A stretch of DNA of 64,000 bases from Arenibacter sp. F26102 (GTDB lineage Bacteria > Bacteroidota > Bacteroidia > Flavobacteriales > Flavobacteriaceae). This document shows positions 42,728-48,171 of the stretch, piece by piece (within the stretch, counting starts at the first letter, position 1; each line of letters opens with the position of its first letter). Below the pieces are notes generated by a model. That model did no database searches, was not told the origin of the DNA, and saw only the letters and a list, made by a program, of their open reading frames with translations. The translations under genes were made by a program, and so were the position numbers. Location of the stretch: the NCBI RefSeq assembly GCF_023015865.1, contig NZ_JALKBC010000004.1, forward strand, positions 248,770 through 312,769, in the 5' to 3' direction.

Positions 42728-43495
42728 TTAATCGTTGACCTTTTTTAATTGATTTTTCAACTCCTCCATAGATTCTTGAAGTTGTCTTAATAATCCTTTC
42801 TCGGAGGTGGCATCGACACCAAAAGTTATTTTACTACTAACCTGCCAAAGCTCTTGTATGTCCTCCGTACCTACAGAATAAGGAGGGTAATTTTCATTTA
42901 AAGAAATTAATGAAATAACCGATGGATTTGGAGATTTTTCTATTTTTTTCACCAACACTGCGTCCTGTAAGACCACAACGTAAATCTTATTGGGACTAAT
43001 TTCCTGAAGTCCTTCCACCGCCTTGGCCAATACCCACTCCCCTGGTTTTAAATTGGGCAACATACTGTCCCCTTCAATCTGAAAACCGCGATAAGTTGCA
43101 TTTCTAAACTCTGGCAAAGGAATATCAAATGCGGGAAGTTGTCTGTACCAACTGGTATCCTGAATATTTTGTGGATAACCGGCTGCCGCTTTTGCATTCA
43201 CCAATACCATATTTTCGTTATCGGAGGAGTTTACGGTAACCACCTTTGGTATAACGCTGATATTTGTAACCGATAAATGCTTTTGGTTACTTTCTCCGAA
43301 TAACCAAAGTGGATTGATCTTAAATTGCTTAAGAAGTTCCGCCACTACTTTTCCAGACAACTTTGTACGCCCCCTTTCAATATCCGCAGTGGTATTTGAA
43401 ATACCAAGTAGTTTGGCAAAATCGGATTGGGTATATCCCAACTCCCTGCGTAGATCGGTAAAACGCTTTGTTACAATTTCCATATCCTCGTTCAT
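42728..43495 (-). CDS. XRE-type repressor with S24 peptidase domain (LexA/CI-like, autocleavable)
   Basis: 255-residue regulator. The N-terminal XRE helix-turn-helix (about 8-65) contains YTQSDFAKLLGISNTTADIE. The S24 domain has a predicted Ala-Gly cleavage site at A105-G106 (AKAAAGYPQ), the catalytic Ser144 in GDSML and Lys183/184 in AVLVKKIE, which together form a LexA-type self-cleavage dyad. A short coiled coil (about 233-253) ends the protein. It is divergent from the 59-aa/DUF4130 operon across 173 bases carrying repeated dyads that are candidate operators. That a RecA-dependent damage signal triggers cleavage is inference from the family. Confidence 0.92.
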   Translation of the reverse strand: MNEDMEIVTKRFTDLRRELGYTQSDFAKLLGISNTTADIERGRTKLSGKVVAELLKQFKINPLWLFGESNQKHLSVTNISVIPKVVTVNSSDNENMVLVNAKAAAGYPQNIQDTSWYRQLPAFDIPLPEFRNATYRGFQIEGDSMLPNLKPGEWVLAKAVEGLQEISPNKIYVVVLQDAVLVKKIEKSPNPSVISLISLNENYPPYSVGTEDIQELWQVSSKITFGVDATSEKGLLRQLQESMEELKNQLKKVND

Positions 43496-43544: not shown

Positions 43545-43568
43545 TGAACAATTAACTTCCTATAGGCT

Positions 43569-43597
43569 CAAATATACGCAATTTGGAATATATCCAA
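43569..43597 (-). promoter_or_regulatory. Candidate promoter of the S24 repressor gene
   Basis: On the minus strand, TATATTTG (43576-43569) fits the -7 TAnnTTTG element, and TTG (43597-43595) stands 18 bases upstream. The -33 element lies within the first operator dyad, consistent with autoregulation. Confidence 0.5.
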
Positions 43598-43658
43598 AAT
43601 ATTTTTTGGACTATCTCCATAATTAGGAAATAATCCATATATTTGGAATAATTACAAA
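43582..43658. promoter_or_regulatory. Array of four dyad operators, consensus TTTGGA-N5-TCCAAA
   Basis: Four imperfect dyads with a 5-base spacer. 43582-43598 is perfect. 43605-43621 has TCCATA as its right arm, 43623-43639 has TTAGGA and TCCATA, and 43642-43658 has TACAAA. Their centres are about 23, 18 and 19 bases apart. They fill the region between the divergent promoters of the S24 repressor and the 59-aa protein, overlapping both -7 or -33 elements. They are the obvious candidate binding sites for the S24 repressor. Confidence 0.65.
43638..43645 (+). promoter_or_regulatory. Candidate -7 element of the 59-aa/DUF4130 operon
   Basis: TATATTTG fits TAnnTTTG, 23 bases before the ATG at 43669, and overlaps the fourth dyad. 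No -33 TTG is seen at the usual spacing, as might be expected for a tightly controlled promoter. Confidence 0.45.
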
Positions 43659-43668
43659 TACAACAAAA

Positions 43669-43848
43669 ATGACTCTGGAAGCTATACACCAAAAATTAAA
43701 CAGACTAGCCCATTCCGGGATGGAGGATAACCACTATTCCAACAATCCGTCCAGTAAGGTTCATAACACCATCAGAAGTCATTCCGTAAAAAAGGAAAGA
43801 AGACGCTTAACAAAAGAATTTAGTGTGCAACTCAGTTTATTTGATTAA
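43669..43848 (+). CDS. 59-aa protein with C-terminal beta-clamp-binding-like motif
   Basis: Below most length cut-offs: MTLEAIHQKLNRLAHSG at the start, a central polar, probably disordered region, a basic KKERRRLTKEF stretch, and the C-terminus QLSLFD (residues 54-59). QLSLF is the consensus by which polymerases, ImuB and other repair proteins bind the DnaN sliding clamp. The gene sits directly behind the operator array and its stop is two bases before the DUF4130 start, which argues for real co-translation. An alternative is that it is a deletion relic of a radical-SAM repair gene, keeping only the two ends. It has no other recognisable domain. Confidence 0.62.
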   Translation: MTLEAIHQKLNRLAHSGMEDNHYSNNPSSKVHNTIRSHSVKKERRRLTKEFSVQLSLFD

Positions 43849-43850
43849 TT

Positions 43851-44564
43851 ATGGAAAATCCTAAAATTTTAATTTACGATGGCAGCTTCAACGGGTTTTT
43901 AACCACAGTTTTTAAAGTGTTTGAGGAGAAAATTGAAGTAACCAACATTCAAAGGAACACAGAGAACCAAAAAGGACTGTTTTCCGAGGCCATAACCGTT
44001 TTTACCCAGATGGATAAGGCAAGACGTGTTTGGAACAGTATACAAAACAAAAGCAATGCCGCTATAAAGGCAATATACTTCGCTTTTTTAAGTGAATCCA
44101 AAGGTGTTGAACTTCTTCTATACCAATACATCCGATCCATGTATGCCAATCCCAATGAAGACCCCTTAGACGACATAGCGGAAATTGTATTAAAAATTCA
44201 GCAACAATCAAGAATGGTGGCGAGGGAAAAACATAGAATTGAGGCCATGGCTAATTTTACAATATCAAAAGACCATATCCAATTTTCCGAAGTGGCTCCC
44301 AGTTTTGACGTACTGCCACTAATTTCAAAGCACTTTCGCACGAAATTCAAGGGTCAAGAATTTATGATTTATGACCGAAAAAGAAAGTATGCCATATACT
44401 ATAACCTGTACACTGTTGAAATTATCTCCTTGGAGCTATCGGCATATCATAACAAGGAAGTTATATCGCAGACCACTTTAAAATATCTAATAAACCATAA
44501 ATTACATTCACAATATACCAATAAACCACAGATGGCATATTTAAATGAAAGGGCTGCAGTATAA
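43851..44564 (+). CDS. TIGR03915/DUF4130-like putative DNA repair protein
   Basis: 237 residues beginning ILIYDGSFNGFLTTVFKVFEEK, with an RRVWNSIQNK segment (about 59-68), an IYFAFLSESKGVELLLYQYI block and the HFRTKFKGQEFMIYDRKRKYAIYYN region (about 164-188). This is the pattern of the DUF4130/TIGR03915 family, which in other bacteria is encoded with, or fused to, a radical-SAM protein and a UDG-like domain and is presumed to act in DNA modification or repair. Here it is alone apart from the 59-aa protein, and no UDG domain is fused. Its biochemical activity is not established. Confidence 0.88.
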   Translation: MENPKILIYDGSFNGFLTTVFKVFEEKIEVTNIQRNTENQKGLFSEAITVFTQMDKARRVWNSIQNKSNAAIKAIYFAFLSESKGVELLLYQYIRSMYANPNEDPLDDIAEIVLKIQQQSRMVAREKHRIEAMANFTISKDHIQFSEVAPSFDVLPLISKHFRTKFKGQEFMIYDRKRKYAIYYNLYTVEIISLELSAYHNKEVISQTTLKYLINHKLHSQYTNKPQMAYLNERAAV

Positions 44565-45214: not shown

Positions 45215-45330
45215 TTAAAAATATTTTAAAGTTAAGAACGCTAATTTATAGCTAAGGTTTTAATCTACAAAAAACTAAATAGCACCAACTTCATTTTTAG
45301 GCTTCAAAGTCGTAACTTCGCACATTGCTA

Positions 45331-48171
45331 ATGAAAATGATTAAGTACGAAGAGAATATAGAGGTTAGAGGCGCTCGTGTGCACAACCTAAAAAATATAG
45401 ATGTTACCATACCACGCGAAAAGCTGGTTGTTATTACCGGATTGTCTGGAAGCGGAAAATCATCCCTGGCCTTTGATACGATTTACGCAGAAGGCCAAAG
45501 GAGATATATTGAAACCTTCTCGGCATATGCCCGACAGTTTTTGGGTGGACTGGAACGACCCGATGTTGACAAAATCGACGGACTGTCGCCCGTAATTGCC
45601 ATTGAGCAAAAAACCACTTCAAAATCGCCCAGATCAACAGTTGGAACTATTACCGAAATTTACGATTTCCTTAGACTTTTATTTGCTAGGGCAAGTGATG
45701 CCTACAGTTACAATACTGGGGAAAAGATGGTTAGTTATGATGATGGGCAAATAAAGGAATTGATCATATCCTCTTACGAAGGTAAAAAGATTAATGTACT
45801 GGCGCCTATCATAAAATCAAGGAAAGGGCACTATAGGGAACTTTTTGAACAGATTGCCAAACAAGGATTTGTTAAGGTAAGGATAGATGGGGAAATAAAG
45901 GATATTGTAAAAGGTATGAAAGTCGACCGTTACAAGACCCATGATATCGAGATTGTAATAGACCGACTGAAAATTGAGGAGAGTTCCGAGCTGGACAAAC
46001 GGATATCTGAAACTATTAATACGGCCATGTACAGTGGCGAAAATGTATTGATGATTTTGGAGGAAGGAACCGAAGTGCCCCGCTATTTTAGTAGGGATTT
46101 AATGTGTCCCACAACCGGAATTTCATATCCTTCCCCTGAGCCCAATACTTTTTCCTTTAATTCACCAAAGGGCATGTGCCCGGATTGTAACGGGCTCGGG
46201 CATGTCTATGAAGTTAATGAAAATAAGATTTTTCCGAACAAAAAAATATCGATCAAAGCAGGCGGCATTGCCCCTTTGGGAGAGTATAAAAATTCTTGGG
46301 CCTTTAAACAGATTGAAACTATAGCCCAACGGTATAATTTTGAAATTACGGCCCCTATTTCCCAAATTCCGGATGAAGCCGTGCAAATATTGCTCTTTGG
46401 GGGCAAAGAAAGTTTTGAGGTAGATTCCAAAACCTTAGGGGTAAAACGACTGTACAAAATAGATTACGAAGGGATATCGAACTTTATTAAGAGTCAATTC
46501 CACGAGGCCAATTCTACTTCTATCAAACGATGGGCAAAAGAATATATGGACAAAATTGAATGTCCAAGCTGCGATGGAACCAGATTAAAAAAGGAGTCCT
46601 TATATTTTAGGATTGCCAACAAAAATATTGCCGACCTCTCTGGTCTGGATATTACGGATTTGGCCGATTTCTTTAACGGTCTGGAAAGAAAATTGGAAGG
46701 AAACCAATTAAAAATTGCCGAAGAAATTATTAAGGAAATAAAAACAAGGATTCAATTTTTATTGGATGTAGGCCTGGATTATCTTTCCTTAAATAGAAAT
46801 AGTAAATCACTTTCTGGAGGGGAGGCACAGCGTATAAGGTTGGCCACACAAATTGGATCTCAACTTGTAGGTGTCCTATATATATTGGACGAACCTAGTA
46901 TAGGTTTGCACCAACGGGATAACGAACGTTTAATAAAATCATTGGAATCACTTAGGGACCTTGGAAATTCGGTAATTGTTGTGGAACATGACCGCGACAT
47001 GATAGAACGTGCAGACCATGTTATAGACATGGGGCCTAAAGCGGGGAAACACGGAGGGGAAATTATATCTGAAGGAATACCGGAGGCGCTAAAGAACCAT
47101 CATACCCTGACTGCTGATTATATTACCGGAAAATTAAAAATTGAGGTTCCCAAAAAACGTAGGGAAGGGAATGGGAAAAGCCTTGTTTTGACTGGTTGTA
47201 CCGGTAATAATTTAAAGAATGTCTCCGTAAGTTTTCCTTTGGGGAAAATGATTGGGGTCACTGGGGTTTCCGGAAGCGGAAAGTCTACCTTGATCAATGA
47301 GACCCTATATCCAATATTGAACGCCTTTTATTTTAATGGGGTTAAAAAACCAATGCCCTACAAAAAAATTAAGGGACTGGAGAATATAGACAAGGTAATA
47401 GACATTAATCAATCTCCCATAGGAAGAACACCAAGGTCCAATCCGGCCACCTATACTGGTGTTTTTAGCGAAATTAGATCGCTTTTTGCCAAGACACAGG
47501 AAGCTGCAATTAGGGGGTATAAACCTGGTCGTTTTAGCTTTAATGTAACTGGGGGACGTTGTGAAACCTGCCAAGGGGGAGGTCTAAGGGTTATTGAGAT
47601 GAATTTTTTGCCCGATGTATATGTCGATTGTGAGACCTGCAACGGGAAACGTTTTAACAGGGAAACCTTAGAGATAAGATATAAGGGCAAATCCATTGCA
47701 GATGTACTGGAAATGACCATAAACGAATCTGTGGCGTTCTTTGAGAATATCCCCAAAATATATCGCAAATTAAAGACTATTCAAGACGTCGGCCTTGGAT
47801 ATATATCCTTGGGCCAACAGTCCACCACCCTTTCGGGAGGAGAAGCACAACGAATAAAATTAGCTACCGAATTATCTAAAAGAGACACAGGAAATACCTT
47901 TTATATATTGGACGAACCAACTACCGGCCTGCACTTTGAGGATATAAGGGTATTGATGATCGTTCTTAACAAACTTGTAAATAAAGGCAATACCGTTGTC
48001 GTAATCGAACACAATATCGATGTTATTAAAATGATGGACTACATTATAGACATTGGTTACGAAGGTGGGCGAAATGGTGGTATGGTAGTTGCAAAAGGTA
48101 CTCCTGAAGAAGTGGCCCTGGATAAAAAGAGTTATACATCAATATTTCTGAGAAAAGAATTAGGTTTGTGA
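45331..48171 (+). CDS. uvrA: Excinuclease ABC subunit A
   Basis: Damage-recognition ATPase of nucleotide excision repair. Two ABC modules: Walker [10 protein letters not shown] (about 38) and GVSGSGKST (about 647), with signatures [19 protein letters not shown] (about 493) and [19 protein letters not shown] (about 838). The C-terminal zinc motif CETCQGGG then CETCNG is intact, as is CPSC near residue 407. In the first zinc module the leading CxxC reads CPTT ([16 protein letters not shown]), so one cysteine is missing. 946 aa from the ATG at 45331; the earlier TTG start is unnecessary. Confidence 0.97.

What the first reader, a model, noticed from the sequence alone, without database searches (positions are those of the whole stretch)
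43582..43658. Four-copy operator array TTTGGA-N5-TCCAAA between a cleavable S24 repressor and a DNA-repair operon
Seen: four tandem dyads with a 5-base spacer (one perfect, the others with one or two mismatches), centred 18-23 bases apart, filling the divergent promoter region and overlapping both candidate promoters. The repressor beside it has the Ala-Gly cleavage site and Ser/Lys dyad of LexA/UmuD. Known: such repressors bind dyads and are inactivated by RecA-stimulated self-cleavage. Inference: this is a damage-inducible regulon with its own operator sequence, distinct from E. coli LexA boxes. I am not aware of this operator being described, but I could not search.
Basis: partly seen in the sequence, partly recalled or inferred. 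Interest (0 to 1): 0.72.

Follow-up and report, generated by a model that had tools for sequence, protein, structure and literature searches.

The report
Bacteroidetes SOS operators and clamp microprotein
The repeated DNA motif is a DNA-damage switch already described for this bacterial family, but in this species it appears to control an unannotated 59-residue protein that resembles only the two ends of a repair enzyme and finishes in a peptide typical of proteins that grip the replication clamp.

Summary
The array is real and far above chance, but its novelty claim fails. GGA-N5-TCC is the published operator of the Flavobacteriaceae group of "non-canonical LexA" repressors (PMC8565304: gel shifts, mutagenesis, mitomycin induction). 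The window's repressor has the published features: CI-type HTH, S24 domain, Ala-Gly site, Ser/Lys dyad. The first three dyads keep their layout in 79 of 80 named relatives. The "fourth dyad" reads better as promoter: in its register the right half is never TCC, and it overlaps a conserved TAnnTTTG box. In the same Arenibacter genome, paired dyads precede dinB, an SRAP gene and a SplB-like radical-SAM gene. It takes the place that in other genera holds the 420-aa radical-SAM enzyme TIGR03916, and resembles that enzyme's first ~35 and last ~25 residues. Of 80 loci, 42 have this microprotein and no enzyme at the locus; 2 have both. I infer, untested, that it is an SOS-induced clamp adaptor for the neighbouring TIGR03915 protein.

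The parts
42728..43495 (-). Non-canonical LexA-type repressor, 255 aa (HTH_3 + Peptidase_S24; A105-G106 cleavage site, S144/K183)
   Evidence: Pfam HTH_3 E 9.3e-9 and Peptidase_S24 E 3.8e-12; A105, G106, S144 and K183 invariant in the 20 aligned sequences
43569..43576 (-). -7 promoter box TATATTTG of the repressor gene (predicted)
   Evidence: CAAAnnTA upstream of the first dyad in 78 of 79 loci; TAnnTTTG as sigma-A -7 box, -12 to -5, from PMC9723704 passages
43582..43598 (.). Operator 1, TTTGGAATATATCCAAA; covers the -33 region of the repressor promoter (position reckoned from the -7 box)
   Evidence: conserved trio in 79 of 80 loci
43605..43621 (.). Operator 2, TTTGGACTATCTCCATA
43623..43639 (.). 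Operator 3, TTAGGAAATAATCCATA; its end overlaps the operon's -7 box
43638..43645 (+). -7 promoter box TATATTTG of the operon (predicted start of transcription about 43650)
   Evidence: TAnnTTTG after the third dyad in 79 of 79 loci that have the trio
43642..43658 (.).
   Evidence: right half TAC in 68 of 79, TGC in 1, no such element in 10
43669..43848 (+). 59-aa microprotein: N-terminal segment like the first residues of TIGR03916, basic linker, C-terminal sliding-clamp motif QLSLFD
   Evidence: no Pfam or NCBIfam family at E<=0.1; purifying selection; family in 44 of 80 loci; profile comparison with the enzyme
43851..44564 (+). TIGR03915/DUF4130 putative DNA-repair protein, 237 aa, without the KRYWKYL tail of its enzyme-paired relatives
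   Evidence: TIGR03915 154 bits, profile 1-195 of 243; DUF4130 E 1.5e-20; tail compared

Best explanation
The locus is the SOS control point of an Arenibacter genome. [quoted passage not shown] RecA filaments formed after DNA damage stimulate self-cleavage at Ala105-Gly106, and both sides are derepressed. The operon then makes a 59-aa microprotein and a TIGR03915/DUF4130 protein. The microprotein is related to the two ends of the radical-SAM enzyme TIGR03916 that occupies this place in other genera. My proposal is that it docks by its N-terminal segment, most likely on TIGR03915, and holds the partner on the DNA sliding clamp by its QLSLF tail, doing the recruiting part of the lost enzyme without its chemistry. 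Shown here: array, conservation, repressor residues, regulon sites, the coding status of the microprotein, its likeness to the enzyme's ends, the motif. Inferred: binding, cleavage and induction in this species (strong, by published homologues); clamp binding (fair); docking on TIGR03915 (weak). The confidence given is for the regulatory part; for the adaptor reading see the section on the most novel reading.
For: Operator and repressor: published motif, EMSA and mutagenesis; residues invariant in 20 aligned sequences; trio of dyads in 79 of 80 loci, followed by a -7 box in 79 and preceded by a reverse one in 78 of those 79; cluster absent from all shuffles; paired dyads 19 bases apart upstream of dinB, SRAP and a PA0069-family radical-SAM gene in the same genome, reversed-pattern control 0. 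Microprotein: present in 17 of 18 genomes of the genus. dN/dS 0.11-0.38 in eight pairs that I picked; pooled over the 11 closest genomes pN/pS is 0.44, with the first 20 (0.32) and last ten residues (0.18) constrained and the middle loose (0.57). Q, L and F of the tail invariant in the 29 aligned, and a profile of the N-terminal part alone finds 44 family ORFs, the same 44 that have the tail. Of 125 window ORFs over 50 aa it is the only one ending QLxLF. A profile of 43 microproteins run over 11,216 ORFs hits, besides the 44 microproteins, only the radical-SAM enzyme below E 1 (20 of 24 loci), by the enzyme's residues ~7-42 and its last ~25. Profile against profile, the N-terminal parts match at E 1.3e-5 (probability 81%) and the C-terminal parts at E 4.7e-6 (86%), against at most 3.1% in the unrelated and reversed controls; 0 of 1000 column shuffles reach the N-terminal score. 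All 14 hits in 299 family genomes lie at this same locus. QL[S/D]LF or QxxLF is the clamp-motif consensus (PMC12309361, passages); the same genome's DinB carries QINLF.
Against: No binding, cleavage or induction data exist for this species in what I saw, and the S. agarivorans protein was not fetched to align. The AlphaFold model of the repressor was poor (pLDDT 54.5). The microprotein-enzyme likeness is weak when the microprotein profile is run against single sequences: best independent E per part 0.56, best joint E 0.001; a profile of the N-terminal 25 positions alone finds no enzyme at E<=1; against the full-length enzyme the profile-profile match drops to E 4.6e-4, probability 33%. Short tails ending QLxLF could converge. 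Nothing tests that the microprotein touches the clamp or TIGR03915. The link between tail loss in TIGR03915 and loss of the enzyme holds in 3 of 5 tree-independent pairs, is undecided in the other 2, and cannot reach significance (p 0.25). One of 18 Arenibacter genomes lacks the microprotein, and 14 of 80 loci keep TIGR03915 alone, so it is dispensable.
Confidence: 0.85

Rival explanations
1. The microprotein is a decaying remnant of the radical-SAM gene, translated by accident, with no function.
For: It sits where the enzyme sits in other genera and resembles its two ends. Real decay occurs nearby: L151 keeps only the last codons of the enzyme after the array, and L095 has neither gene.
Against: Open frame kept in 17 of 18 genomes of the genus and at 44 of 80 named loci, which overlap with those genomes but reach several other genera; dN/dS below 1, strongest at the two ends; tail residues invariant.
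Confidence: 0.08
2. The microprotein works on its own as a clamp competitor: after damage it occupies the clamp cleft and slows or hands over the replicative polymerase, while TIGR03915 acts separately.
For: It is small, basic in the linker, ends in a strong motif and is under an SOS operator. Its conserved N-terminal segment need not bind TIGR03915.
Against: In the 44 loci that have it a TIGR03915 gene is present too, and 14 of 14 hits in whole genomes are at this locus, which favours a shared job.
Confidence: 0.3
3. The microprotein is an unrelated small gene whose clamp tail and start converged on those of the radical-SAM enzyme.
For: The likeness is short; the N-terminal profile alone finds no enzyme at E<=1; two loci hold both genes side by side.
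Against: Both ends match in register in profile comparison, with controls empty, and the N-terminal match starts residue on residue; the same place in the operon.
Confidence: 0.2
4. The microprotein arose several times, each time by internal deletion of the local radical-SAM gene, rather than once.
For: Loci with it are not one clade on the repressor tree (AU p 7.3e-6; 6 changes, at least 4 forced by starred branches).
Against: 40 of 43 microproteins share a Gly where 24 of 24 enzymes have Ala, and two loci keep both genes side by side (L120, L124): an old duplicate with later losses of one or the other fits better. Transfer of the locus between lineages is also possible.
Confidence: 0.2
5. 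The dyads belong to a prophage-type CI switch, not to the cell's SOS response.
For: The repressor has a CI-type HTH_3 domain.
Against: The same repressor and TIGR03915 gene recur in 80 named loci, 79 of them with the array; same dyads upstream of dinB and SRAP; published regulon. I did not scan the flanks for phage genes.
Confidence: 0.02

Closest known systems
Non-canonical LexA of the Bacteroidetes, GGA-N5-TCC group (Sanchez-Osuna et al. 2021, PMC8565304)
   Same: Same domain make-up, cleavage residues, dyad with 5-base spacer, autoregulation, several dyads per promoter, family (Flavobacteriaceae), and regulon genes (dinB, SplB-like, SRAP, a repair operon with COG4277).
   Different: The paper's main text has no occurrence of Arenibacter or Maribacter (supplements not seen) and describes the repair operon as UDG plus COG4277; here the radical-SAM partner is gone from the operon and a 59-aa microprotein stands in its place. 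That COG4277 is TIGR03916 is recalled.
TIGR03916 radical-SAM protein linked to TIGR03915 (putative DNA repair)
   Same: Same operon behind the same kind of array in 24 of 80 loci (in 2 of them after the microprotein); similar first ~35 and last ~25 residues, including a C-terminal QLxLF.
   Different: The microprotein lacks the whole catalytic body (about 360 residues).
Bacterial sliding-clamp binding proteins (QL[S/D]LF / QxxLF motif)
   Same: C-terminal QLSLF, identical to the PolC motif reported in PMC12309361 (passages).
   Different: Those in the passages I read are polymerases; this is a 59-aa protein with no other known domain, and binding is untested.
E. coli LexA / SOS box
   Same: Works alike: cleavable S24 repressor on dyad operators.
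   Different: Winged-helix DNA-binding domain and a different operator (PMC8565304, and recall); not a member (HTH_3 here).

Membership tests
Non-canonical LexA, GGA-N5-TCC group | N-terminal penta-helical HTH (PF01381) and C-terminal S24 peptidase domain | tested here: met
   HTH_3 35.6 bits over cut-off 23; Peptidase_S24 46.4 over 23.3
Non-canonical LexA, GGA-N5-TCC group | Ala-Gly scissile bond and Ser/Lys dyad | tested here: met
   A105-G106, S144, K183 invariant in the 20 aligned sequences
Non-canonical LexA, GGA-N5-TCC group | GGA-N5-TCC dyads in the repressor's own promoter | tested here: met
   Three dyads with fixed spacing, 79 of 80 named loci
Non-canonical LexA, GGA-N5-TCC group | Same dyads upstream of error-prone polymerase and other SOS genes | tested here: met
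   Pairs 19 bases apart before dinB, SRAP and PA0069/SplB-like genes; 3 places against 0 for the reversed pattern, which as written does not catch the window's own array and so is not exhaustive; recA and umuDC not examined
Non-canonical LexA, GGA-N5-TCC group | Extra C-terminal alpha-helix after the S24 domain | tested here: inconclusive
   Model shows helix 232-254 but with mean pLDDT 54.5
Non-canonical LexA, GGA-N5-TCC group | Sequence orthology to the tested S. agarivorans protein | not tested
   That sequence was not fetched
Non-canonical LexA, GGA-N5-TCC group | Binding, RecA-stimulated cleavage, damage induction | not testable with these tools
   Bench work; binding and induction published for another species
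Canonical LexA | Winged-helix LexA DNA-binding domain | tested here: not met
   HTH_3 family found, no LexA-type domain listed at E<=0.1
TIGR03916 radical-SAM family (for the 59-aa ORF) | Full radical-SAM catalytic domain above the curated cut-off | tested here: not met
   No NCBIfam or Pfam hit at E<=0.1; no TIGR03916 match in the whole genome at E<=0.001
TIGR03916 radical-SAM family (for the 59-aa ORF) | Common descent with the enzyme's two ends | tested here: inconclusive
   Profile-profile match of both ends with empty controls, joint best E 0.001 by profile search, but no enzyme found by the N-terminal profile alone at E<=1
Sliding-clamp binding proteins (for the 59-aa ORF) | QL[S/D]LF or QxxLF pentapeptide | tested here: met
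   QLSLFD at the C-terminus; Q, L, F invariant in the 29 aligned
Sliding-clamp binding proteins (for the 59-aa ORF) | Measured binding to DnaN | not testable with these tools
   Needs a binding assay

The most novel reading that the evidence does not exclude
A DNA-damage-induced microprotein family, related to the two ends of a radical-SAM DNA-repair enzyme (TIGR03916) with its catalytic body missing, replaces that enzyme in a clade of marine Flavobacteriaceae and acts as a bare clamp adaptor for TIGR03915, whose own enzyme-facing tail has decayed in step.
Probability: 0.4. Interest if true: 0.68.

Novelty: new variant of a known kind. Interest (0 to 1): 0.42.

Why it matters
The operator needs no discovery: it extends a published SOS system to Arenibacter and fixes its exact layout (three dyads on two back-to-back promoters). 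The new point is the protein it drives. If the 59-aa product binds the clamp, an enzyme has been reduced to its docking ends, and what remains marks which parts of the poorly understood TIGR03915-TIGR03916 repair pair do the recruiting. That makes the pair's function testable with a peptide and a pull-down.

Tried and rejected
Rejected: 'new operator' (published); 'four operators' in the window (in the fourth's register TCC was found in 0 of 79 loci; six loci have a full dyad 4 bases further on); prophage switch; simple decay of the radical-SAM gene.

Weak or empty: AlphaFold model of the repressor too poor to use, so no fold search was made with it. Model of the TIGR03915 protein good in its core (pLDDT 85.1, tail 217-237 under 50), but its PDB matches are weak: two at E<=0.001, best 8a8k at TM 0.43; a DHH-domain protein and RecJ rank next. 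A lead towards a DHH-like fold only. No solved relative of it by sequence at E<=1. Perfect TTTGGA-N5-TCCAAA sites alone (7 in the genome) are a poor guide: five (L001-L005) lie inside ORFs, one is the window's, and the one in L007 is about 100 bases before a gene that reads as a sulfatase (my reading) and is unexplained. Tree-corrected tests of tail loss against enzyme loss lack power.

Papers: TIGR03915/TIGR03916 gave none; DUF4130 with radical SAM one (PMC3765255, passages read); COG4277 only PMC8565304; clamp-binding motif with QLSLF two listed, one read in passages; small protein with clamp-binding motif and SOS none; sliding clamp with microprotein and SOS response none. The library excludes most subscription journals, and no supplements were read.

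Recall: 'SplB-like' for PA0069, DHH for 8a8k, COG4277 as TIGR03916, and the -33 element are recalled or partly so.

Full report
Observation. The four dyads are at 43582, 43605, 43623 and 43642 with 0, 1, 2 and 1 mismatches to TTTGGA-N5-TCCAAA. GGA-N5-TCC as such is common (16 in the window, shuffled mean 14.7), but three within 80 bases were never reached in 300 shuffles of the window, nor in 20,000 shuffles of the intergenic stretch.

Anatomy. The stretch lies between the start of a 255-aa repressor (42728-43495, minus) and a 59-aa ORF (43669-43848, plus) followed two bases later by a 237-aa TIGR03915/DUF4130 protein (43851-44564). The region has a TATATTTG box on each strand, at 43638-43645 (plus) and 43576-43569 (minus). 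TAnnTTTG is the sigma-A -7 box at -12 to -5 in Flavobacterium psychrophilum (PMC9723704, passages read). By that rule the operon starts near 43650 and the repressor transcript near 43564.

Conservation. I searched 100 related genomes with the repressor (69 with a match) and scanned named genomes, which gave the best 80 loci (534 found) and named the genus as Arenibacter. The trio of dyads with spacings 22-23 and 18 is present in 79 of 80 (L117 has two of the three); the plus-strand -7 box follows it in 79 of 79 and the minus-strand box precedes it in 78 of 79. In the fourth element's register the right half is TAC in 68, TGC in 1 and absent in 10 of 79, never TCC. Six loci (L139, L140, L145, L146, L149, L153) have a complete fourth dyad 23 bases beyond the third. 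In an earlier set of 25 loci, 24 had the 18-spaced pair and L043 did not.

Known system. PMC8565304 (results sections and the first of two parts of the discussion read) reports GGA-N5-TCC as the operator of one group of non-canonical LexA proteins, found mainly in Flavobacteriaceae, with CI-type HTH and S24 domains. For the S. agarivorans protein it reports specific binding, loss of binding when either dyad half or the spacer length is changed, and mitomycin C induction of target genes (not of recA). Its regulon includes dinB, SplB, SRAP and a COG1573-COG4277 repair operon. The window's repressor fits: HTH_3 and Peptidase_S24, Ala105-Gly106, Ser144 and Lys183 invariant in the 20 aligned sequences. 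In this genome a search for paired dyads gave three places against none for the reversed pattern; single sites with an A/T spacer at up to one mismatch number 41 and 49 on the two strands against 14 and 18 for the control. The three pairs lie before dinB (IMS domains), SRAP and a PA0069-family radical-SAM gene.

The overlooked gene. The 59-aa ORF has no Pfam or NCBIfam match at E<=0.1. It is intact in 17 of 18 genomes of the genus (G010 lacks it). dN/dS in eight pairs that I picked within the genus is 0.11-0.38; pooled over the 11 closest genomes pN/pS is 0.44 overall (0.56 over the whole genus set), 0.32 for residues 1-20, 0.57 for the middle and 0.18 for the last ten. It ends QLSLFD. PMC12309361 (passages read) gives QL[S/D]LF or QxxLF as the clamp-motif consensus, with PolC's C-terminal QLSLF binding the clamp. 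In this genome DinB carries QINLF and the PA0069-family protein ends QLKLF.

Its origin. In other genera the gene in this place is the 420-aa radical-SAM protein TIGR03916, which the window's genome lacks (no match at E<=0.001). Of 80 named loci, 22 have enzyme + TIGR03915, 42 microprotein + TIGR03915, 2 all three (L120 Zeaxanthinibacter, L124 a MAG), and 14 TIGR03915 alone. I moved L151 from 'microprotein' to 'alone' because its 45-residue frame starts inside the array and holds only the enzyme's last codons. A profile of 43 microproteins over 11,216 ORFs of these loci hits the 44 microproteins, the enzyme in 20 of 24 loci at E<1 (21 at E<=5) and no other protein below E 1. The profile's positions 1-36 fall on the enzyme's N-terminus and 36-60 on its last 25 residues; each part alone is weak (best 0.56), the joint best is 0.001. 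A profile of the first 25 positions alone finds the 44 microproteins but no enzyme at E<=1. Profile against profile is clearer: N-terminal parts E 1.3e-5 (81%), C-terminal parts E 4.7e-6 (86%), about 32% against the full-length enzyme, at most 3.1% for TIGR03915, repressor and reversed controls; 0 of 1000 column shuffles reach the N-terminal score, whose best register is residue 1 on residue 1. In 299 genomes of the family the microprotein occurs in 14. All 14 are at this locus: ten checked in fetched regions, and the window's own plus three by coordinates beside the repressor.

Once or many times. Microprotein loci are not one clade on the repressor tree (AU p 7.3e-6; six changes, four forced). 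Yet 40 of 43 microproteins share a Gly where 24 of 24 enzymes have Ala, and two loci still hold both genes. I prefer an old partial duplicate followed by loss of one or the other, over repeated deletion; transfer is not excluded.

The partner. The TIGR03915 protein keeps a tail containing KRYWKYL (or a close form) in 23 of 23 loci with the enzyme whose end is readable (L124 is cut by the contig end), 0 of 42 with only the microprotein and 2 of 14 alone. Of five tree-independent pairs that differ in the enzyme, the tail goes with it in 3 and does not differ in 2 (p 0.25). In the window's protein the corresponding stretch (217-237) is predicted with low confidence while the core is well predicted (pLDDT 85.1). 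So the tail probably serves the enzyme and is lost with it.

Mechanism. Shown: anatomy, conservation, coding status, motif, replacement pattern. Inferred from published relatives: repression, RecA-stimulated cleavage, induction. Proposed: the microprotein is the recruiting part of the lost enzyme, with an N-terminal docking segment, a basic linker and a C-terminal clamp hook, tying TIGR03915 to the clamp after damage (my estimate 0.4 for that reading; a free-standing clamp competitor 0.3).

Verdict. Operator: real, important locally, already known in kind. Microprotein: not found described in the papers held here, a new variant of a known SOS operon. I added convergence as a rival and lowered repeated origin from 0.25 to 0.2 to make room for it.

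Noticed in passing
L057:1510-2610 (own genome, contig C11): The PA0069-family (SplB-like) radical-SAM gene under a pair of dyads is interrupted by one in-frame stop in this genome; both pieces match the family and the tail ends QLKLF.
   Followed up: partly
L049, L052, L054: Three of 18 Arenibacter genomes carry a second, complete TIGR03916-TIGR03915 operon elsewhere, with the KRYWKYL tail and without GGA-N5-TCC dyads just upstream.
   Followed up: partly
window 43851-44564: The TIGR03915 model's best PDB matches are weak and include a DHH-domain protein and RecJ; its N-terminal YDGSFNGFL might be a degenerate phosphoesterase motif (my guess).
   Followed up: partly
L151 upstream of the repressor: A deletion running from the array to the last codons of the radical-SAM gene has left TIGR03915 intact: an apparently recent independent loss of the enzyme.
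   Followed up: no
L139, L140, L145, L146, L149, L153: Flagellimonas/Muricauda loci have a fourth complete GGA-N5-TCC dyad 23 bases beyond the third; in L140, read in full, it lies downstream of the -7 box.
   Followed up: no
window 45325-48171: An ORF that reads as uvrA starts about 760 bases beyond the operon, with a minus-strand ORF between, and an ORF with a similar N-terminus lies near the locus in L055.
   Followed up: no
L007:1501-1517 (own genome, contig C77): A perfect isolated TTTGGA-N5-TCCAAA about 100 bases upstream of a gene that reads as a sulfatase; chance or regulation unknown.
   Followed up: no
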